From Bradyrhizobium sp. CCGB12 (GTDB lineage Bacteria; Pseudomonadota; Alphaproteobacteria; Rhizobiales; Xanthobacteraceae), in the NCBI RefSeq assembly GCF_024199845.1, contig NZ_JANADO010000001.1, positions 8,420,001 to 8,484,000 on the forward strand: DNA of 64,000 nucleotides, given 5' to 3'. The translations under genes were made by a program, and so were the position numbers. Each line of letters begins with the position of its first letter. The first letter of the stretch is position 1. The notes below the pieces were generated by a model. The model ran no database searches. It was not told the origin of the DNA and was given only the letters and a program-made list of their open reading frames with translations. Positions 974 through 15,697 of this stretch are shown here, piece after piece.

Positions 974-2113
974 CTAGAATGTGTCGCGATAGGCTTCGAG
1001 CCTGCCGGCGTGCTTCAGCGTCTCCTGCAGGTCGCGTGCATCGAGATTCGGAAACAGCGCATGGAATCTTTCGTCGGCGAGCATCGAAAGCAGCATCCTG
1101 ATGTAGGCCGGTTCGCTCGGATGGTAGGGGTCGGCAAATTCATCCAGTCGGCCCCCGAAACTCTCCAGGTCGCTGAAATCGAAATAAAGCACGCCCTGCT
1201 TTCGGATCCATTCGTTCGTTGCTTCCGACCGGAATTGCCGCCAGGCCCCGTAGTGCGGCGATCGCTCCATAGCCTCGCGCACCTTCGGAGTGTACGGCAT
1301 CGTGACGCCGACCAGCGCGATGCCCTTCTGCCTCGCCAGCTCGGTGAAGCGTTCGAAGTCCCGGAGAATCGAGCCATCGAGGTGCTCGGCGGGAACGAGC
1401 GGCCATTGCTTTCCGGCTTCGATCGCAGACACGCTGCTCGTGCCGTCGTCGAAGGTGAGGGATCCGTAATTGTAGGATCCGTCCAAGCGAAATCCGACGC
1501 CGGTTCTGATCGCCGACAGGCCCAGTGCTGGGGCAGCATTGTGAGAGGGCCAGGGAAAGCTGCGCGTCTTCACGAGGTCGTCGAGGACGCCCTGGATGAT
1601 GCGGATCTGCTCAGGTGAAGCCCAGCCGCCCACCTCGGCGCGAGATTGCGCTAGATAGGCTGTCTCGAATGCCGGCACGAAGGTGAAATAGTCGAACGAG
1701 AAGAGGATGACGCGCGGGCTGAAGTCGCCGAATTCCTCCAGCATGCGGCGGAAGTCCCGGACAACGAAAACTGCGTTTGCAGCGTTGTAGAATCGCGCCG
1801 GACGAAACATGGCGCTTCGCCACTGATTTCCCCGCGATGATCCCATCGCTATCGCTTCCGGTTTCCTCCGGAGGACGGCTTCGAGCTTCAGTCGATACGA
1901 ATGATCCGAAAGCTTGGCCAGGAATGTGAATGGCGTTCCCCGGGTTTGCAGCCATGCGATGGCACTGACGGGCAGCAGTTCGCCGCTCAGATACGAGATT
2001 GCAGCTCCGGGAATTGCGATCGCGGCCAGCGGCAGCAGGAACAAGGCCAGCCGCAAGACGAACCGTCTGGCGGGGGTTGGCTTAGAATTTGAAATAGATG
2101 AACTGCTGGACAT
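974..2113 (-). CDS. SGNH-hydrolase-like membrane-anchored protein, partner of the MBOAT acyltransferase
   Basis: The 379-residue protein has an N-terminal membrane anchor (about residues 18-42) and a periplasm-facing domain. AMGSSRGNQW (S92/S93, nucleophile region) and DPYHPSEP (D328, H331) fit the Ser and Asp-His blocks of DltD/AlgX/AlgJ-type SGNH proteins. Such proteins commonly sit beside an MBOAT and help move acyl groups onto extracytoplasmic glycans. The gene overlaps the upstream MBOAT gene by 32 bases, so the two are probably translationally coupled. It is the last gene of the minus-strand FkbH/ACP/MBOAT operon. The substrate is unknown; catalytic assignment rests on motifs only. Confidence 0.75.
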   Translation of the reverse strand: MSSSSSISNSKPTPARRFVLRLALFLLPLAAIAIPGAAISYLSGELLPVSAIAWLQTRGTPFTFLAKLSDHSYRLKLEAVLRRKPEAIAMGSSRGNQWRSAMFRPARFYNAANAVFVVRDFRRMLEEFGDFSPRVILFSFDYFTFVPAFETAYLAQSRAEVGGWASPEQIRIIQGVLDDLVKTRSFPWPSHNAAPALGLSAIRTGVGFRLDGSYNYGSLTFDDGTSSVSAIEAGKQWPLVPAEHLDGSILRDFERFTELARQKGIALVGVTMPYTPKVREAMERSPHYGAWRQFRSEATNEWIRKQGVLYFDFSDLESFGGRLDEFADPYHPSEPAYIRMLLSMLADERFHALFPNLDARDLQETLKHAGRLEAYRDTF

Positions 2114-3509
2114 TCGAAGATGCCTGTAGGACGTGCTCGATCATTGCGATGAGGATGCACACAACGCCGGCGTAATAGCCCGACCAACGGAGCCAGACCG
2201 GGAACGGCTTGGCGTCCTTGACCCATGTGACCAGGAGGTCGTACGCGATGGCCGCCGCAATGACGATCACGGGCTTGCTCAGCGCGACCGTTCGGACGCC
2301 CTCGGCTCCGGTGATGAGTGCCTTGTAGATCCAGAGCGCTTCTCGCAGGCCGCTGGCGCGAAACAGGATGAACGTCAGGGTGACGATCAGGAAGGTCGTC
2401 GTGGCACGCAGCACCAGCAACACCGGGCGCGGAACGTGGGATCGCCAAAACCGATCACGCCGGGCGAAGGTGAGTGTCGAAAAAGCGACGAGGGCGCCAT
2501 GGATCAAGCCGAAAACCGCGAAGTTGAATCCGGCGCCGTGCCAGATGCCGACGAGCACGAACGTAAAGACCAACGCCCCCGCAAGACCGTACTTGCCCCA
2601 GCGTCGCGCCTGGAACTGCAGCGGCATGAAGACATAGTCGCGAAACCAGGAGGACAGGCTGATGTGCCAGCGTCGCCAGTAGTCCGGCAGATTCTGGCTG
2701 AGCCAGGGCTGCATGAAGTTGATCGTAAGTTCGATGCCCAGCAGGCGCGCGCTGCCGATCGCGATCAATGAGTAGCCGGCAAAATCCGCGTAGACCTGAA
2801 ACGAAAAATAGATCGTGGCCAGCGCCAGGTCGACGGCCCCATGGTTGCGGGGCGCCGAGTAGACGGCATCGACGTAAGGGGCCAGCGTGTCGGCGACGAC
2901 GATCTTGAGGAACAGGCCGGTGAGGATGGCGCGCAGGCCGGTCACGGCGCGTTCGTAGTTGAACACGCCGACATTTCCGAGCTGCGGCAGCAAATGCCGG
3001 GCGCGCTCGATCGGACCGGCGGTCAGGTGCGGGAAGAAAAACATCACTGCGCCGAACCGGATCGCGTTCGTTTCGGCCGGCAGGCTTCCGACAAAGACGT
3101 CGATGACGTATCCGGCTGCGAGAAACGAATAGAACGAGATGCCGATCGGCAGGATGATGTTGGCCATCGTCGACCACCGGCCCGCCAGATCGCCGTCCGG
3201 CGGCAGCAGATGATAGGCGGTTGCCGCGTACTTGAAGCACAGCAGCGGCAGCAGGGTGATCGTCAGAAGCGCAGCAAACAGCATGCTCCGCGCCCGGCCG
3301 TCGGGCACGCGGGACAAGACCATTCCGGACAGATAGGCCAGCGCGGCGACGGCGACCAGCACGTACCATGTAGCCGGATTGAGGCTGACATAAAAGACCA
3401 GGCTGATGAAGGCTATCGCGAGCAGGCGTGGAGCGCCCTGCGGAATTGCGTGCACGATCAGCGTCACAACTCCGAGAACCAGCAGGTAACGCAGATCGCT
3501 GAAGGCCAT
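2082..3509 (-). CDS. MBOAT-family membrane-bound O-acyltransferase (AlgI-like)
   Basis: The protein has 475 residues and many hydrophobic segments, the usual length for AlgI/DltB-type MBOATs. Hallmarks are WHISLSSWFRDY (residues 281-292) and GIWHGAGF with the predicted catalytic His324. A PIGISFYSF segment near residue 121 and AGPIERA near residue 164 are also typical of AlgI-like members. These enzymes sit in the inner membrane and transfer an acyl group from a cytoplasmic carrier towards an extracytoplasmic acceptor. Here the carrier may be the ACP encoded 3 bases upstream, which is inference. The downstream SGNH gene overlaps it. Acetyl transfer to an exopolysaccharide is the conservative alternative. 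Confidence 0.88.
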   Translation of the reverse strand: MAFSDLRYLLVLGVVTLIVHAIPQGAPRLLAIAFISLVFYVSLNPATWYVLVAVAALAYLSGMVLSRVPDGRARSMLFAALLTITLLPLLCFKYAATAYHLLPPDGDLAGRWSTMANIILPIGISFYSFLAAGYVIDVFVGSLPAETNAIRFGAVMFFFPHLTAGPIERARHLLPQLGNVGVFNYERAVTGLRAILTGLFLKIVVADTLAPYVDAVYSAPRNHGAVDLALATIYFSFQVYADFAGYSLIAIGSARLLGIELTINFMQPWLSQNLPDYWRRWHISLSSWFRDYVFMPLQFQARRWGKYGLAGALVFTFVLVGIWHGAGFNFAVFGLIHGALVAFSTLTFARRDRFWRSHVPRPVLLVLRATTTFLIVTLTFILFRASGLREALWIYKALITGAEGVRTVALSKPVIVIAAAIAYDLLVTWVKDAKPFPVWLRWSGYYAGVVCILIAMIEHVLQASSNVQQFIYFKF

Positions 3510-3512
3510 TGG

Positions 3513-3752
3513 CTACGCCGGGAGCTTCCCGCGCAAGCAGTCCATCATCTCGCCGACGTTCTGGAAGCCCATCACCTCGCGGGTGCTGAACTTTACCTTG
3601 AAGGTTTCCTCGAGCGTCATGATCAGGGTGATGTGATTCAGCGAATCCCAGTTCGCGACGTCCTTGGCCTGCATTTCCCGATTGATGTTCAAGGCAGGAT
3701 TGTCGAACACCTCGCGGAAGACGTTCTGTACGCGTGTTTCAAAATCGCTCAT
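3513..3752 (-). CDS. Stand-alone acyl carrier protein
   Basis: This is a 79-residue acidic four-helix carrier protein. The phosphopantetheine attachment serine is S37 in the motif WDSLNHI, followed by the LIMTLEETFKVKF helix typical of ACPs. It is not the fatty-acid AcpP, whose motif would be DSLD/E with neighbouring fab genes. The ATG overlaps the stop codon of the upstream FkbH-like gene by one base (TAATG), and the MBOAT gene starts 3 bases downstream. This tight packing suggests that FkbH loads this carrier and that the acyl group then goes to the MBOAT. Loading of glycerate-derived units by FkbH proteins is known from polyketide pathways; its use here is inferred. Confidence 0.9.
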   Translation of the reverse strand: MSDFETRVQNVFREVFDNPALNINREMQAKDVANWDSLNHITLIMTLEETFKVKFSTREVMGFQNVGEMMDCLRGKLPA

Positions 3753-5539
3753 TATGATCGCGGCTCTGGTTCGTGAATGATGATTGGGATGGACTGCTGC
3801 TGGTAGTGGGCGAGATCCAGCGAATAGAGGCGCGTTGCCCCTTCTTCGCCGGCAGCGGCGAAGCCCTGCTGCGAATAGAGATTTTCAACGATGCCGTTCT
3901 TGGTGGTCGGGATGTAGCGCCCGACCAGCCTGCGGCAGCCAAGCTGCCGGGCTTTTTCGGCCATGAGCTGAACCGTCAGGTCCTCGACACGGCGTCCGAG
4001 CACGCGACAGCTCATGATCCAGGTGTCGACCACGGCATCGCTGCCCGACTTCCTCAGGATCACCGTCGCGATGATGCCATTGTCGCCGAGCCGGTCGGCC
4101 AGCCGAATGCAGAGAGCCGCGACGTTGCGGTCAGCGGCAAGCTGGCGCAGATCGGCTTCGCTGTGCCGGATGGTCGTGAGGTTGAATTGGTTGCTCCGCT
4201 GGACGAGCTGGAGGACACGCGGCAGCGCGTAGCTGTCGAACGGCAGGATGTGCGCCTCCATCCCGAGTTCGGCGATGAAGTCATCCAGCCCGTGAAACTT
4301 CTCTCTGATCGTCTGACGCTCATCGTCCGCCTGATAATAGGCGAGCCGGGCCAGATCCTCGGCCGTCGCCGACCGGCCTTCGAACAAATTCCAGCGGGCG
4401 AGGTCGCTGATGAAGTCGGCGGGGTCGGTCGACAGCTCCGGCACCTGCATCGCAGGAAACGCCGTTCGGATGAGAGACCGCTCGAAAGCGGTATCGTCGA
4501 GGAAGACGAAGCTGTCGAGACCGAGGTTCAATTTTTCCCGGATCGCTAGGATATTGCTGGCCTTGTCGCCGAAATTGGCTACGACGGCCGCGAAATCATC
4601 CCAACGCAGGATCATGTCGGGATGATTTTTCAAAACGTCCGTTACGTTCGCCTGGTCGTTCTTGCTGCACACCGCGAGAAGGACGCCTCGAGATTTCAGT
4701 TCGAGCAGCGCAATCTGGAAGCGCTGGAAAGCAAGCCCAAGTTCGGTCTGCCCGACCTCGATCCGGTCTGCGCCGTCCTCGGCCAGAATGCCTCCCCACA
4801 TCGTATTGTCGAGATCGACGATTACGCATTTGATGCCGGCGCCGCGTTCCACCAGGATGGTATCGCTGACGTTTTTGACCAGCGAAGGAACGAAGGACGG
4901 GGACAATGCCTGCTTCGCTTGGCACCAGAGCCGCTCGTCGAGCCAATGTCGCTTGCCGTGGTAGGCGGCCTGGAATTCGGTGTCGACGATCTTCACGCCG
5001 TGCTCGGAAGCGGCGTCGAGAAGGCTCTGGTTGATCCGCGCCACGGTCGATGTCAAGGTCTCGCGCTCGCCCGCGGTGCGGTTGCCGAACGGGCGATTGA
5101 GCGGCACCACGAAATTGTGCTGAACCAGGATAGCGTTGCTGCGCGACCGTACCTGCTTCCACAGTTCGATGATCTCGCTGCTGACGCTATCGGCGAAGGC
5201 GGCTTTCCCGGCACTTCGCGCGAAGCGGTGGTAGAGCGCCTGGGTTGCCGTGAAAAGAATGACCACTTCCGGATCGAAGCGATAGAGTTCGCTCGTTGGA
5301 TTCAATATCTCCTGCCGTATCGTATCGAACTCGGCCTCGTAGACCTCCGGCCACCATCCCCTCAACTTCAAGGTGGCGGCGAGGGCCTGCCCGTAATGCT
5401 GGGTAGCAGCATCGCCGAGCAGTGCGATACGCAAGCTCGGTTGCCCTTCCTTTCGTTCGACGCGCCGGCCAAGCGAGATCAACCGGTGGAACGGCAGGTC
5501 GACCAGTTCCCATGCCTGCGGCAAGTTCAGCGAGTCCAT
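3752..5539 (-). CDS. FkbH-like HAD-IIIC family protein
   Basis: The 595-residue protein has three parts: an N-terminal SGNH-like domain (about residues 35-220, beginning IALLGDAATQHY), a HAD-IIIC domain with VDLDNTMWGG (nucleophile D242 and D244), and a C-terminal GNAT-like domain carrying RSNQFNLTT. This architecture is that of FkbH-like enzymes, which dephosphorylate 1,3-bisphosphoglycerate and load the glyceryl unit on a carrier protein. The ACP gene follows with a one-base overlap. In polyketide clusters the product feeds methoxymalonyl-ACP, but no polyketide synthase is present here, so the fate of the unit is open. The start codon at 5539 is an ATG; no better upstream alternative is visible. 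Confidence 0.88.
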   Translation of the reverse strand: MDSLNLPQAWELVDLPFHRLISLGRRVERKEGQPSLRIALLGDAATQHYGQALAATLKLRGWWPEVYEAEFDTIRQEILNPTSELYRFDPEVVILFTATQALYHRFARSAGKAAFADSVSSEIIELWKQVRSRSNAILVQHNFVVPLNRPFGNRTAGERETLTSTVARINQSLLDAASEHGVKIVDTEFQAAYHGKRHWLDERLWCQAKQALSPSFVPSLVKNVSDTILVERGAGIKCVIVDLDNTMWGGILAEDGADRIEVGQTELGLAFQRFQIALLELKSRGVLLAVCSKNDQANVTDVLKNHPDMILRWDDFAAVVANFGDKASNILAIREKLNLGLDSFVFLDDTAFERSLIRTAFPAMQVPELSTDPADFISDLARWNLFEGRSATAEDLARLAYYQADDERQTIREKFHGLDDFIAELGMEAHILPFDSYALPRVLQLVQRSNQFNLTTIRHSEADLRQLAADRNVAALCIRLADRLGDNGIIATVILRKSGSDAVVDTWIMSCRVLGRRVEDLTVQLMAEKARQLGCRRLVGRYIPTTKNGIVENLYSQQGFAAAGEEGATRLYSLDLAHYQQQSIPIIIHEPEPRS

Positions 5540-5594
5540 GCGCCGGGGTTCCGATTAGAGCGAGACAATCACTGGCAACGTGCAATCGGTGTCG

Positions 5595-6014
5595 TCATTG
5601 CAGCGACTCCGCATCCAGAATGCGATGCCAGGTCTTGCCCGATGCCAGAACAGTCCCCTTGTCGTCGGTGATCGCGATATCCAGGACGATCGTCGCGACG
5701 GCTTCGCTGATCTGCCTGACCGTTGCGGCCAACGTGACGTCACAGGGCGCGTAGCATGGCCTGCGAAAGGCGATATCCGCCCGCTCGAGGACTGATCGCG
5801 CGCCCGGGAACTCCGTTCCGACGAGGCGTGACACCAAGGCCATGAGGTACGCCCCGTGCACGACCACGCCCTCGAAGCCCGCGGCTTTCGCGAACTCTGC
5901 GTCAACATGCAAAGGAGAGGTGTCGCCCGACAGCGCGACATATCGGGCCAGGTCATCCCGCGTGATCGGAACTCCCAGATGATGGGTCTGGCCGACGTGA
6001 AATGCCGTCAACAT
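5595..6014 (-). CDS. MaoC-like (R)-specific hydratase, hot-dog fold
   Basis: This 139-residue single hot-dog domain has the MaoC hydratase signature: YVALSGDTSPLHVDAEFAKA supplies the catalytic Asp and His, followed by VVHGAYLMALVSRL. Such enzymes hydrate or dehydrate enoyl-thioesters on CoA or ACP. Its position 55 bases upstream of the FkbH-like gene on the same strand suggests action on an ACP-bound intermediate. The ATG at 6014 is preferred over a possible TTG at 6041, because it starts directly before the conserved domain and gives the usual length. The region up to 6298 is the divergent promoter region towards the methyltransferase; no clear operator was seen there. Confidence 0.82.
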   Translation of the reverse strand: MLTAFHVGQTHHLGVPITRDDLARYVALSGDTSPLHVDAEFAKAAGFEGVVVHGAYLMALVSRLVGTEFPGARSVLERADIAFRRPCYAPCDVTLAATVRQISEAVATIVLDIAITDDKGTVLASGKTWHRILDAESLQ

Positions 6015-6298
6015 TCGTGGCTCGTCCGGTGTATGCCGCAATGATAGCGACCGACTACTGATTGCTGATTATTTCCGGACTGTCGCCCGATATTGCCGAC
6101 TATTGCCATGAAGCAGGTATGGCAGTCAAAGCCCAACTAGAGCGTTAGGGCCCCGGGACCACAGCTTGGCGGGTTGAAGCCGGCATGAGGCCGCGCCAGC
6201 GGTGTTCTGCGGCGATTTGCTTGTGTTTCCGTTCAGCTTGTTTGCGGCGGGATTTCGGTGATACTTTTGCAGTTCACGGGAAAGACGAGGTCAATCTA

Positions 6299-7210
6299 TT
6301 GAATACTCTGCAAAAATGGGCCGCCATCTGCGACGAGATGCAGGAAAGCTATCCGGTCCTTGCGACCCCGTTTCTTGCAGCCGAAAAGCGGTTCGGGCCT
6401 CGTTGGGTCGAGGAAGCGGTGCCGGCTATCGAGGGAATGTACGGCGACATCGGCAATCCCCTGTCGGATCGTCTGAAAGACGCCTTGGGTTGCTACGCCG
6501 AGTTCGCGAACGATTCCATGCGCCACCAGGTCATGTTCGAGCGAAGCGGAAAATATCGCGCGTCCAATTATGAGGAGGTGCGTACGGCGCTGTACGATAA
6601 TGCCGACCACATGACTCAGAACTATCTGCCGGGCCTGTGGTTCTCGCATTACGTTTGGCCGCAGCACTACTTCACGCTGATCGGATTCACGAATTGCGTG
6701 TTGCCGCGGATCGAGGATGAGGGCGTATTCTTCGAAGTCGGTGTTGGTTGCGGCATGTACTCCAAGGTGACCCTGGACAACAAGCCGGGCATGCGGGGTA
6801 TCGGCTTCGACATCAGCCAGCACTCGCTCGACTACACAGGCCGGGTGATGACGTCGTTCGGCTACGAATCCAGGTACAAGCTGGAAAATCGCGACATCCG
6901 CCACGGCTACCACGTCAAGGCGGATTTCCTGATCTGCCAGGAAGTCCTCGAACATCTGGAAAATCCGGCCGAGTTCTGCCGTTGGCTGTTCGACATGATC
7001 CGCCCGGGAGGACAGGCCTTCATCACCGCCGCGCTTAACGCGGGTCATTCCGACCACATCTTCCTCATTCGCCATCCGATCGAGGTCGAAAAGATGCTCA
7101 CCGATGCCGGTTTCCAGATCACGCGCATTCAGGAAGAAACCGCGCCGGGTTCCAAGCCGCGCAATCTCACGCCCAGCCTCGCCGGCTTCCTCTGCGTAAA
7201 GCCGCTCTGA
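6299..7210 (+). CDS. Class I SAM-dependent methyltransferase (cluster member)
   Basis: The C-terminal half carries a Rossmann-type methyltransferase domain with motif I VFFEVGVGCGMYSKV and later ICQEVLEHLENP and RPGGQAFITAALN. The N-terminal about 120 residues are helical and not recognised. I favour a TTG start at 6299 (303 residues) because AAAGACGAGG lies just upstream and the extension back to the ATG at 6185 is Cys/Arg-rich and non-globular in appearance. The ATG at 6341 is a further option. It is divergent from the FkbH operon and 2 bases before the SDR gene, so it probably modifies the same product. Methyl acceptor is unknown. Confidence 0.75.
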   Translation: MNTLQKWAAICDEMQESYPVLATPFLAAEKRFGPRWVEEAVPAIEGMYGDIGNPLSDRLKDALGCYAEFANDSMRHQVMFERSGKYRASNYEEVRTALYDNADHMTQNYLPGLWFSHYVWPQHYFTLIGFTNCVLPRIEDEGVFFEVGVGCGMYSKVTLDNKPGMRGIGFDISQHSLDYTGRVMTSFGYESRYKLENRDIRHGYHVKADFLICQEVLEHLENPAEFCRWLFDMIRPGGQAFITAALNAGHSDHIFLIRHPIEVEKMLTDAGFQITRIQEETAPGSKPRNLTPSLAGFLCVKPL

Positions 7211-7212
7211 CG

Positions 7213-7827
7213 ATGACCAAGCTCGTCATCATCACGGGCACGAGCCGGGGACTGGGCAGGGCGCTCAAGCGGGAATTCGAGCGGGTCGGGTGGCGCGTGG
7301 CCGAATTGAACCGGCCCGCGTTCGATCTATCCGCGATCGACGTCGAAAAGCTCGATATCACGTTCACGTCGCTGCGCTCGGAACATCTTGATCGCGCGGT
7401 GTTCATCAACAACGCTGCGACGCAGCTCATAGCTGCCGCGGCATCGTTTGCGGCGACCGAGATTTCGCGTGAAATCACCGTCAACGTAACGTCCCCGATC
7501 ATCGCGATCGCGTCGTTCCTGCGCCATTTCCCCGAAGGCGAAATCGCCAACGTGACGTCCGGAGCCGCGACCAAGGGAATACCGCATTGGTCGCTGTACT
7601 GCGCGGCGAAGGCCGCGCTCGAGGGCTATATCCGCGCCATCGAAGCGGAAGGACGGCGTGTGTTCAATCTCAACCCGGGCGTGATCGATACCGACATGCA
7701 GGCCGCTATCCGCCGCGCCGAATTCCCCGGCGTGCAAGACTTCATCGCCTTGAAGCAGGACGGGAAGTTGAGATCGTCGGATTCGGTAGCGAAAAATCTG
7801 GTGTGGATGATAGACCGCGCCGAATGA
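7213..7827 (+). CDS. Short-chain dehydrogenase/reductase
   Basis: The 204-residue protein shows the classical SDR pattern: nucleotide-binding TGTSRGLGRAL near residue 9, NNAA in the middle, an SGA segment and the catalytic YCAAKAA, then NPGVIDTDM. It lies 2 bases after the methyltransferase stop, so the two form an operon. At 204 residues it is short for the family, lacking part of the region between the cofactor-binding and active-site halves. In context it probably reduces or oxidises a keto or hydroxyl group of the acyl or sugar unit handled by the divergent FkbH/ACP genes. Substrate and NAD/NADP preference are not determined. Confidence 0.82.
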   Translation: MTKLVIITGTSRGLGRALKREFERVGWRVAELNRPAFDLSAIDVEKLDITFTSLRSEHLDRAVFINNAATQLIAAAASFAATEISREITVNVTSPIIAIASFLRHFPEGEIANVTSGAATKGIPHWSLYCAAKAALEGYIRAIEAEGRRVFNLNPGVIDTDMQAAIRRAEFPGVQDFIALKQDGKLRSSDSVAKNLVWMIDRAE

Positions 7828-14123: not shown

Positions 14124-14353
14124 GGCCGAGTTCCCTGGGGTTCCGCTCTGTTCCGCTATTCCCCGAGGAAATATAGTGTTAACAATACGTTATCGGAGCG
14201 GCGGTACGCTTGGTTCCGTAACGATTTATCATATTTTTTGAAGCCAAGTTTGCCGCGATAGCTTTATAAGACCTCAGCACATCAGGGATGCGGGGCCCGT
14301 TCGGGCAGCCCGTGGTTGCAGAGGGGATCCCTGGTTGTTGCGTGGGGGACGAT

Positions 14354-15697
14354 ATGAGCCGCAAATATTTCGGGACGGACGGGATCCGGGGCCGCGCCAA
14401 TGGTCTGATCACGCCGGAGCTCGCGCTCAAGGTCGGCCAGGCCGCAGGCCTTGCGTTTCAGCGCGGTGACCACCGCCACCGGGTCGTGATCGGCAAGGAC
14501 ACCCGCCTGTCCGGCTACATGATCGAATACGCGATGGTCGCGGGCTTCACCTCGGTCGGCATGGACGTGCTGCTGGTCGGCCCGATGCCGACGCCGGCGG
14601 TCGCGATGCTGACCAAGTCGATGCGCGCCGATCTCGGCGTGATGATCTCGGCCTCGCACAATCTGTTCGAGGACAACGGCATCAAGCTGTTCGGACCGCA
14701 GGGCTTCAAGCTCTCCGACGACGTCGAGAGGCAGATCGAGCAGTTGCTCGACGAATCCCTCGACAAGCGGCTGGCGCAGAGCGCGAGCCTCGGCCGCGCC
14801 CGCCGCATCGACGGCGTGCATGACCGCTACATCGAATTCGCCAAGCGCACGCTGCCGCGCGATCTGTCGCTGGACGGCCTGCGCGTCGTGGTCGATTGCG
14901 CCAATGGCGCCGCCTACAAGGTGGTGCCGGAGGCGTTGTGGGAGCTGGGTGCCGACGTCGTGCCGATCGGCGTCGAGCCCGACGGCTTCAACATCAACAA
15001 GGAATGCGGCTCCACCTCGCCGGAAGCGCTCTCGAAGAAGGTGCGCGAGATGCGCGCCGACATCGGCATCGCGCTCGACGGCGACGCCGATCGCGTCATC
15101 CTGGTCGACGAGCGCGGCCACATCGTCGACGGCGACCAGCTGCTCGCGGTGATCGCGCAGAGCTGGAAGGAAGACGGCCGGCTGTCACGGCCGGGCATCG
15201 TCGCGACCGTGATGTCCAATCTCGGCCTCGAGCGCTTCCTGAAAGGGCAGGGGCTCGATCTCGTCCGCACGCCGGTCGGCGACCGCTATGTTCTCGAGCA
15301 GATGCTGAACGGCGGCTACAATCTCGGCGGCGAGCAGTCCGGCCACATCATCCTGTCCGACTATGCCACCACCGGCGACGGCTTCGTTGCGGCGTTGCAG
15401 GTGCTGGCGGTGGTGCAGAAGCTGCGCCGGCCGGTCTCGGAGGTTTGCCATCGCTTCGATCCGCTGCCGCAGATCCTCAAGAACGTCCGCCACAAGGGCG
15501 GCAAGCCGCTCGACAATTCCGACGTCAAATCGGCGATCTCCGACGGCGAGAAGCGCCTCAACGGCCACGGCCGTCTGCTGATCCGCTCCTCCGGCACCGA
15601 GCCGGTGATCCGCGTCATGGGCGAGGGCGAGGACCGCATCCTGGTCGAGGACGTTGTCGACACCATCGTCTCGGCGCTCGGCCAGGCGGCGGCGTAA
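14354..15697 (+). CDS. glmM: Phosphoglucosamine mutase
   Basis: This 447-residue enzyme interconverts glucosamine 6-phosphate and 1-phosphate for UDP-GlcNAc, and so feeds peptidoglycan and LPS. The start [10 protein letters not shown] is diagnostic. The phosphoserine is S101 in MISASHN, the metal-binding loop is DGDADR (about 242-247), the sugar loop is GGEQSGH, and the phosphate-binding [12 protein letters not shown] is near the C-terminus. The ATG at 14354 fits the family N-terminus. The 230-base upstream region contains an AT-rich stretch near 14170-14270 that probably holds the promoter. In many alphaproteobacteria glmM follows ftsH/folP; here its left neighbour is the small gene at 13956. 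Confidence 0.95.

What the first reader, a model, noticed from the sequence alone, without database searches (positions are those of the whole stretch)
974..7827. FkbH-ACP-MBOAT-SGNH-MaoC plus methyltransferase-SDR cluster: possible novel glycan acylation pathway
Seen: a tightly packed minus-strand operon (FkbH-like HAD, ACP with a one-base overlap, MBOAT 3 bases on, SGNH protein overlapping by 32 bases), a MaoC hydratase just upstream, and a divergent methyltransferase-SDR pair. Known: FkbH proteins load a glyceryl unit from 1,3-bisphosphoglycerate on a carrier protein for polyketides; MBOAT-SGNH pairs acylate extracytoplasmic polymers. No polyketide synthase is present. Inference: a glyceryl-, lactyl- or related methylated acyl-ACP may be made and handed by the MBOAT to a surface glycan.
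Basis: partly seen in the sequence, partly recalled or inferred. Interest (0 to 1): 0.72.

Follow-up and report, generated by a model that had tools for sequence, protein, structure and literature searches.

The report
Carrier-protein-fed envelope O-acylation cassette
A soil bacterium carries a self-contained seven-gene cassette that most likely makes a small acyl group from a sugar-breakdown intermediate, loads it on a carrier protein and passes it across the membrane to decorate a cell-surface sugar polymer; similar gene sets occur in distant bacteria, but the chemistry is untested.

Summary
The seven genes form one block between a DUF992 and an EF-G-like gene that are neighbours, without the block, in 29 of 29 other Bradyrhizobium loci examined; two other strains carry the block at the same site. 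The MBOAT ends in FIYFKF, the acyl-shuttle tail of MBOAT-SGNH acyltransferases. FkbH-ACP-MBOAT sets recur in distant phyla (MBOAT near 23 of 60 FkbH loci), often with glycan genes. Best reading: a Dlt-like relay in which FkbH charges the ACP with glycerate, MT/MaoC (perhaps SDR) tailor it, and MBOAT plus SGNH put it on a periplasmic glycan. Published work says non-Dlt MBOAT-SGNH systems lack a carrier protein, so this is a new variant. FkbH- or ACP-linked MBOATs also lack a PLGG[NS]R loop (33 of 35), but its absence alone does not predict linkage. Weak points: the SGNH assignment, the acyl and the acceptor. No experiment or structure prediction was available.

The parts
974..2113 (-). SGNH-type extracytoplasmic acyltransferase, probable (379 aa); one N-terminal TM-like segment (15-44); G91-S-S93-R94 and Asp328-x-x-His331
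   Evidence: 17 of 18 fetched neighbourhoods of its relatives hold an MBOAT within 6 kb
2082..3509 (-). MBOAT acyltransferase (475 aa): His282, His324, C-terminal tail FIYFKF with Tyr472; no PLGG[NS]R loop
   Evidence: (E 1.6e-29 to DltB)
2082..2113 (-). 32-base overlap: codons of the MBOAT tail contain the SGNH start
   Evidence: -32 also in L027, L028 and Pedobacter L050, -35 in L036, but the spacing varies widely elsewhere
3513..3752 (-). acyl carrier protein (79 aa), WDS with Ser37
   Evidence: W35 and S37 in 56 of 56 aligned rows, window included
3752..5539 (-). FkbH-type HAD-IIIC protein (595 aa), DLDNT motif; predicted to load glyceryl from 1,3-bisphosphoglycerate on the ACP
   Evidence: the only FkbH match in the genome
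5595..6041 (-). MaoC-type dehydratase/hydratase, 55 bases before FkbH; Asp40 and His45 kept, Ser in place of the usual Asn of D-x-N-P-x-H (Ala in the two strain copies)
   Evidence: MaoC-MT fusion P0197
6299..7210 (+). SAM-dependent methyltransferase (303 aa, TTG start)
   Evidence: neighbourhoods
7213..7827 (+). short-chain dehydrogenase/reductase (204 aa), Y129xxxK133
   Evidence: (best structure hit an unnamed SDR, then sepiapterin reductases)

Best explanation
A self-contained, patchily distributed envelope O-acylation cassette that works like the Dlt D-alanylation relay but carries a glycerate-derived acyl. Steps: (1) FkbH takes glycerate from 1,3-bisphosphoglycerate and loads it on the phosphopantetheine of the dedicated ACP. 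(2) On the ACP the C3 acyl is tailored by the methyltransferase (most likely O-methylation) and by MaoC with, less surely, the SDR (beta-elimination and keto reduction, which would give a lactyl-type unit); my split is about 0.35 O-methylglyceryl, 0.3 O-methyl-lactyl, 0.15 lactyl, 0.2 other. (3) The MBOAT accepts the acyl from the ACP, not from CoA, and moves it to Tyr472 in its periplasmic C-terminal tail. (4) The membrane-anchored SGNH-type protein takes it on Ser93 and esterifies a periplasmic glycan made by genes elsewhere in the genome. Shown: gene set, motifs, block at one site, recurrent linkage. Inferred: every reaction, the donor, the acyl and the acceptor.
For: Six of seven proteins exceed curated cut-offs. 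One block: flanking genes adjacent and no cassette gene in 29 of 29 other loci (the 29 best non-own of 115 places); full cassette at the same site in L027 and L028; GC 0.605 against 0.655 and 0.648 beside it, though the rest of the window is 0.63. FkbH neighbours within 6 kb, 60 loci with some near-copies: ACP 47, MBOAT 23; of the 23, 14 have glycan-synthesis genes within 10 kb; own-genome MBOAT density is 4 in 9.4 Mb, so by my arithmetic about 0.6% of loci would have one by chance. Tail F-x-Y-x-x-F in 31 of 34 FkbH-linked MBOATs; its role is described in PMC12148441 (passages). PLGG[NS]R-type loop absent in 33 of 35 FkbH- or ACP-linked and present in 19 of 19 unlinked MBOATs; it lies about where DltB has the helix that binds DltC. 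L207, another alphaproteobacterial family, carries MBOAT-SGNH-MT-MaoC-ACP-FkbH plus SDRs; MaoC-MT fusion P0197. Carrier-bound glycerate that is O-methylated is proposed for suomilide, and oocydin has a DH-MT-FkbH-ACP module.
Against: No biochemistry. SGNH assignment is weak: PF13472 in 15 of 44 members, profile E 1.8e-6 over 87 C-terminal columns to a set with one Pfam-DltD member, no SGNH structure by profile, no match to the DHHW pair; S93, D328 and H331 are invariant in the 44 close rows, but in 29 more distant partners only G91, P273 and H331 reach 80%. My count of SGNH near FkbH (19 of 60) is partly circular, since several seeds were picked because they lie beside an MBOAT; of 11 such partners scanned, Pfam finds an SGNH-type domain above cut-off in 3, below it in 1, nothing in 7. 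Relatives of the window SGNH mostly lack FkbH nearby (1 of 18). Loop absence is not specific: 5 of 29 unlinked MBOATs of a blind sample lack it. No glycan gene was found beside the window's cassette. 37 of 60 FkbH loci show no MBOAT, so FkbH-ACP serves other pathways too. The OocJ DH and MT domains are thought inactive.
Confidence: 0.68

Rival explanations
1. FkbH-ACP-MaoC-MT-SDR makes a building block for a secreted small molecule or lipid, and the MBOAT acylates that molecule or a glycolipid, not a polymer.
For: FkbH is best known from polyketide and peptide pathways; suomilide clusters hold FkbH and an MBOAT proposed to acylate the hexose of the peptide.
Against: No PKS/NRPS domain in the 20 window ORFs scanned; the shuttle tail and a partner protein are features of extracytoplasmic polymer acylation; 14 of 23 MBOAT-positive FkbH loci have glycan genes.
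Confidence: 0.14
2. Two neighbouring but separate functions: an ordinary CoA-dependent MBOAT-SGNH acetyltransferase beside a FkbH-ACP pathway with its own unknown end use.
For: Relatives of the SGNH mostly sit with MBOATs and without FkbH (17 of 18 with MBOAT, 1 of 18 with FkbH); MBOAT-SGNH pairs other than Dlt use acyl-CoA as far as described.
Against: Overlapping operon and one block; FkbH-ACP-MBOAT in one gene run in Clostridia, Bacteroidota and Alphaproteobacteria; linked MBOATs lack the loop of most unlinked ones, and in the two Aquimarina loci the FkbH-adjacent MBOAT lacks it while the far one has it.
Confidence: 0.13
3. A variant of the best explanation: the acyl is plain glyceryl or another unit (for example 2-hydroxybutyryl by C-methylation), with MaoC as hydratase or scaffold.
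For: MaoC has Ser or Ala for the usual Asn in the window, its strain copies, L079, L207 and the fusion P0197, although L037 and L209, also with an MT, keep Asn; four Clostridia loci on contigs of 10-19 kb have FkbH-ACP-MBOAT and partner with no tailoring gene seen (L029, L030, L032, L035).
Against: MT and MaoC are kept with FkbH in several lineages and fused once.
Confidence: 0.25

Closest known systems
Dlt teichoic-acid D-alanylation (DltA-DltC-DltB-DltX-DltD)
   Same: Carrier protein, MBOAT and SGNH-type partner in one operon; the only solved-structure matches of the MBOAT are DltB proteins (2 distinct sequences).
   Different: FkbH replaces the adenylating ligase DltA; the shuttle Tyr is on the MBOAT itself, not on a DltX; MBOAT scores 193 bits against the DltB equivalog cut-off of 375.
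MBOAT-SGNH O-acetylation pairs with fused shuttle tail (PatA-PatB; alginate and cellulose systems)
   Same: C-terminal tail, two conserved His, adjacent anchored partner.
   Different: Those lack a carrier protein and evidently use acyl-CoA (PMC12148441, passages); here an ACP and its loading enzyme are in the operon and the PLGG loop is missing.
FkbH glyceryl-ACP modules of tetronate, methoxymalonyl and suomilide pathways; DH-MT-FkbH-ACP module of oocydin
   Same: FkbH plus carrier, with MT (and DH) tailoring (PMC7489565, PMC10143770, PMC13122637, PMC4552970; passages).
   Different: No PKS/NRPS found; the acceptor machinery is an MBOAT-SGNH pair.
Di-O-methylglyceryl pseudaminic acid on C. 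jejuni flagellin (PMC3068675)
   Same: A methylated glyceric acid decorates a surface glycan (passages).
   Different: The passages tie it to Cj1295; that the same locus holds ACP, MT and HAD-IIIC genes is recalled and was not found there (acyl carrier, Cj1300, Cj1302: 0 occurrences). That no MBOAT-SGNH pair takes part is also recalled.

Membership tests
FkbH glyceryl-ACP loading system | FkbH domain over curated cut-off with DxDxT motif | tested here: met
   TIGR01686 287.1 bits (cut-off 146.65); DLDNT in the translation, (motif role recalled)
FkbH glyceryl-ACP loading system | Stand-alone ACP with phosphopantetheine Ser next to it | tested here: met
   PP-binding 27.5 bits (20.8), one-base overlap; Ser37 in 56 of 56 rows
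FkbH glyceryl-ACP loading system | 1,3-bisphosphoglycerate as donor | not testable with these tools
   needs enzyme assay
MBOAT-SGNH envelope acyltransferase | MBOAT with catalytic His pair | tested here: met
   PF03062 66.6 bits (27); His282 in 34 of 35 rows, His324 in 35 of 35
MBOAT-SGNH envelope acyltransferase | C-terminal acyl-shuttle hexapeptide with Tyr | tested here: met
   FIYFKF, Tyr472
MBOAT-SGNH envelope acyltransferase | SGNH-fold partner | tested here: inconclusive
   S93, D328, H331 invariant in 44 rows but S93 and D328 under 80% in 29 distant partners; weak Pfam; profile match to a DltD-like set; none; structure prediction switched off
MBOAT-SGNH envelope acyltransferase | no carrier protein, acyl-CoA donor (non-Dlt members) | tested here: not met
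   ACP in the operon; the donor itself was not assayed
Dlt D-alanylation | DltA-type adenylating ligase | tested here: not met
   none among the seven genes
Dlt D-alanylation | DltB equivalog | tested here: not met
   TIGR04091 193.1 of 375 bits
Dlt D-alanylation | separate DltX shuttle gene | tested here: not met
   tail is on the MBOAT; gaps of -32, 3, -1 and 55 bases leave no room in the operon 974-6041
Polyketide / NRPS cluster | PKS or NRPS domains nearby | tested here: not met
   none in 20 of 62 window ORFs of 250 aa or more; upstream L071 not scanned

The most novel reading that the evidence does not exclude
FkbH-ACP-MBOAT-SGNH loci are a third, widespread class of envelope acylation machine: carrier-protein-fed MBOAT-SGNH transferases with a built-in Tyr shuttle, in Bacteroidota, Clostridia and Proteobacteria, that write glycerate-derived esters on surface polysaccharides. 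Interchangeable tailoring genes (MaoC, often with an SDR, or a VOC protein, never both in 76 neighbourhoods; with or without a methyltransferase) would set which ester is written, and loss of the PLGG loop would be part of re-tooling MBOATs to take acyl-ACP; on the MBOAT tree the loop state changed at least three times on supported branches.
Probability: 0.43. Interest if true: 0.8.

Novelty: new variant of a known kind. Interest (0 to 1): 0.6.

Why it matters
MBOAT-SGNH pairs are described as using acyl-CoA except for Dlt (PMC12148441, passages). A carrier-protein-fed, glycerate-derived version in several phyla would mean that bacteria can write hydroxylated or methylated C3 esters on their surface polymers straight from glycolysis, and would give a sequence handle (FkbH and ACP beside a tailed MBOAT) to find such polymers. 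It also links the FkbH family, known from antibiotics, to envelope chemistry.

Tried and rejected
Polyketide reading: not favoured, no PKS/NRPS domain in the ORFs scanned. Membership in Dlt: rejected on three tested features. Loop absence as a stand-alone predictor of ACP use: tested on a blind sample (58 genomes; 30 of 32 MBOAT places had loci) and rejected. By the strict pattern 22 of 30 have the loop, 24 with the variants in L226 and L237; of the 6 without it only L239/L248 has FkbH and ACP near; of the other five, L241 is a 4.1-kb and L247 an 8.9-kb contig, and L244 lies by GT4 genes. The 24 with the loop were checked for ACP only in their short flanks. Net charge of the loop region does not separate the groups. 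Independent pairs of loop against linkage: 3 supported pairs, nearly always in the expected direction, too few for significance. Solved structures with the SGNH profile: best 13 hits are twelve TPR-like or designed proteins and one other design, E 0.0096 or worse. The MT profile finds many class I methyltransferases, O- and N-types alike, so it does not settle what is methylated. The SGNH protein finds 1 plasmid record (23.6% identity); the MT at E 1e-40 only the own genome among 296 of the family.

Literature (open-access library only, so no proof of absence): FkbH+MBOAT 2 papers, both suomilide/aeruginosin; FkbH, acyl carrier protein, polysaccharide, glyceryl (3 of 4) 21 listed, none by title on a polysaccharide pathway with FkbH (listing); FkbH/O-antigen/glyceric acid (2 of 3) 14 listed (listing); HAD-IIIC+MBOAT none; gellan+glyceryl+acyltransferase+gene cluster none; MBOAT+SGNH+acyl carrier protein none; FkbH+exopolysaccharide 1, on cluster reconstruction (listing). 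The lactyl start of bryostatin is recalled: one search listed 9 papers, and in the one I opened for it (PMC4552970) bryostatin appears only in a reference. PMC7591256 had none of the terms sought.

Rows dropped: of 22 FkbH places I fetched 13 wider regions (own, its near copy G056 and 7 partial or weaker matches left out). Of 44 loci the two strain copies were left out of the counts. Of 119 plasmid records 6 were opened, 5 counted (L087 has no annotation and is S. meliloti like L090). Of 18 non-own MT places 16 regions covered 17. Of the SGNH places regions were fetched (G207, G284 and one G268 place not). A1 uses 43 of 79 SGNH hits; A2 36 of the 120 listed MT hits (420 in all) plus 6 loci. 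The FkbH tree leaves out proteins under 450 aa, the MBOAT tree those under 440. Near-copies (L045/L053, L083/L084, L041/L068, L170-L176, Ruminococcus loci) were not collapsed. Gene calls rest on home-made profiles seeded from one to a dozen proteins; some are missed (ACP of L079, L091, L207, found).
Full report
WHAT IS THERE. Six proteins exceed curated Pfam or NCBIfam cut-offs; the SGNH does not (18.2 of 32.9 bits). The window lies in a 9.4-Mb genome; the nearest carriers of the cassette are Bradyrhizobium. TIGR01686 and the FkbH protein each find one FkbH in the genome; there are three further MBOATs.

ONE BLOCK. I examined the 29 best non-own loci (of 115 places in 114 of 117 genus genomes) found with the EF-G-like protein: in 29 of 29 the DUF992 and EF-G-like genes follow each other, with the aminotransferase on the other side, and no cassette gene lies between. 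In the window the seven genes lie there, and so they do in CCBAU 51765 and B. japonicum SZCCT0231. Of 265 genus genomes searched with the SGNH protein 10 match, but only the own genome and G056 have the close form (79% or more; the other places 24-31%). GC is 0.605 in the block, 0.655 and 0.648 on the two sides, 0.63 in the rest of the window. So the divergent MT-SDR pair belongs with the operon; I looked for no integrase or repeat, and mobility is not shown. Identity to the strain copies is 91-94% for FkbH, ACP, MBOAT, MaoC and MT, 83-84% for SDR and 79-80% for SGNH: the protein expected to touch the acceptor changes fastest (inference).

MECHANISM PARTS. The MBOAT matches only DltB among solved structures (E 1.6e-29), keeps both His residues and ends in FIYFKF. 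PMC12148441 (passages) shows for PatA that the Tyr of this tail is acylated and then used by the SGNH partner; [quoted passage not shown] The window cassette mixes the two: carrier protein as in Dlt, tail as in PatA. 31 of 34 FkbH-linked MBOATs found here have the tail, but so do unlinked ones (18 of 18). The 32-base overlap places the SGNH start inside the tail codons. The SGNH protein has one TM-like segment, invariant G91-x-S93-R94 and Asp328-x-x-His331 in 44 rows, and aligns by profile over its C-terminal part with four partners of other FkbH loci of which one scores as DltD (E 1.8e-6). In 29 more distant partners S93 and D328 fall under 80%, and Pfam sees an SGNH-type domain above cut-off in 3 of 11 such partners scanned. 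Its closer relatives sit by an MBOAT in 17 of 18 neighbourhoods, which is the best independent support for its role.

RECURRENCE. Over 60 FkbH neighbourhoods (42, 13, 5 plasmids) ACP lies within 6 kb in 47 and MBOAT in 23; a partner called SGNH in 19, a count that is partly circular because several seeds were chosen by their place beside an MBOAT. 14 of the 23 MBOAT-positive ones have glycan genes within 10 kb. Examples: Clostridia FkbH-ACP-MBOAT-partner (L029, L030, L032, L035), Chitinophagaceae FkbH-MT-ACP-VOC-MBOAT-partner with NDP-sugar genes (L036), Pedobacter FkbH-ACP-MaoC-SDR-MBOAT-partner-GT2-GT2 (L050), Rhodobacteraceae plasmid ACP-FkbH-MBOAT with two GT2 (L089), S. meliloti pSymB (L090). 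On the FkbH tree (71 rows) the MBOAT label needs at least 11 changes by supported branches (15 in the best tree, shuffled mean 23), so the link was made or lost repeatedly. Against a simple story, 37 of 60 FkbH loci show no MBOAT near, and only 1 of 18 neighbourhoods of SGNH relatives has FkbH.

TAILORING. Searching with the MT alone, 9 of 16 neighbourhoods hold FkbH, 11 ACP, 14 either, 6 MBOAT. P0197 fuses MaoC to the MT; P0168 runs from MT into an FkbH N-terminal domain but looks broken, so I give it little weight. L207, from another alphaproteobacterial family, has MBOAT, SGNH, MT, MaoC, ACP, FkbH and distant SDRs (18-19% identity). MaoC and a VOC protein (PF13669) never occur together (15 and 18 of 76 neighbourhoods, both in 0; by my arithmetic about 3 if independent). 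Carrier-bound glycerate that is methylated is proposed for suomilide (PMC10143770, PMC13122637, passages), and a DH-MT-FkbH-ACP module exists in oocydin, thought inactive (PMC4552970, passage). MaoC and a reductase could turn glyceryl into lactyl; this is chemistry by analogy, and the window SDR is only distantly related to those of the other loci.

DONOR SIGNATURE. FkbH- or ACP-linked MBOATs lack PLGG[NS]R in 33 of 35; the two exceptions are the second MBOATs of the Aquimarina loci, nearly 6 kb from FkbH, whose near ones lack it. 19 of 19 unlinked have it. It lies at about DltB residues 303-310, in or next to the helix that binds DltC (PMC11035591, passages; mapping by hand). The blind sample weakens this: 5 of 29 unlinked MBOATs also lack it. 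So linked MBOATs lack the loop, but its lack does not by itself mean ACP use.

VERDICT. A real, coherent cassette; most probably a carrier-protein-fed MBOAT-SGNH O-acylation system with a glycerate-derived acyl. The acyl, the acceptor and the SGNH fold are inferred.

Noticed in passing
L051, L052, L054, L055, L057, L058, L060, L067 (Ruminococcus and other Clostridia): A second recurrent FkbH-ACP arrangement followed by proteins of about 200, 176, 310, 785 and 480 aa (not all in every locus), without MBOAT except L058; function unknown.
   Followed up: no
L075, L076, L077 (Bradyrhizobium relatives): FkbH-ACP followed by a very long protein of 1044-1741 aa and, in L075 and L077, near a VOC protein; no MBOAT seen.
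   Followed up: no
76 FkbH or MT neighbourhoods: MaoC and VOC (PF13669) proteins look like alternatives in FkbH loci: 15 and 18 occurrences, never together; close FkbH relatives differ (L039 against L042, L038 against L043).
   Followed up: partly
L170-L174, L176 (Bradyrhizobium relatives): MBOAT followed by two tandem SGNH-type genes, usually with a 501-aa protein, an RmlA-like and NDP-sugar genes: a separate conserved MBOAT-SGNH locus with no ACP seen.
   Followed up: no
L197, L198, L199: The MT family directly followed by ACP and two proteins of about 289 and 333-350 aa with no FkbH within 6 kb, so another source may load this ACP.
   Followed up: no
window 974-2113 against L027, L028: SGNH is the least conserved cassette protein between strains (79-80%) while FkbH, ACP, MBOAT, MaoC and MT are 91-94%.
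   Followed up: partly
window 14288-15697: A phosphoglucomutase/phosphomannomutase gene lies about 6.5 kb beyond the cassette; no link to the cassette was tested.
   Followed up: no
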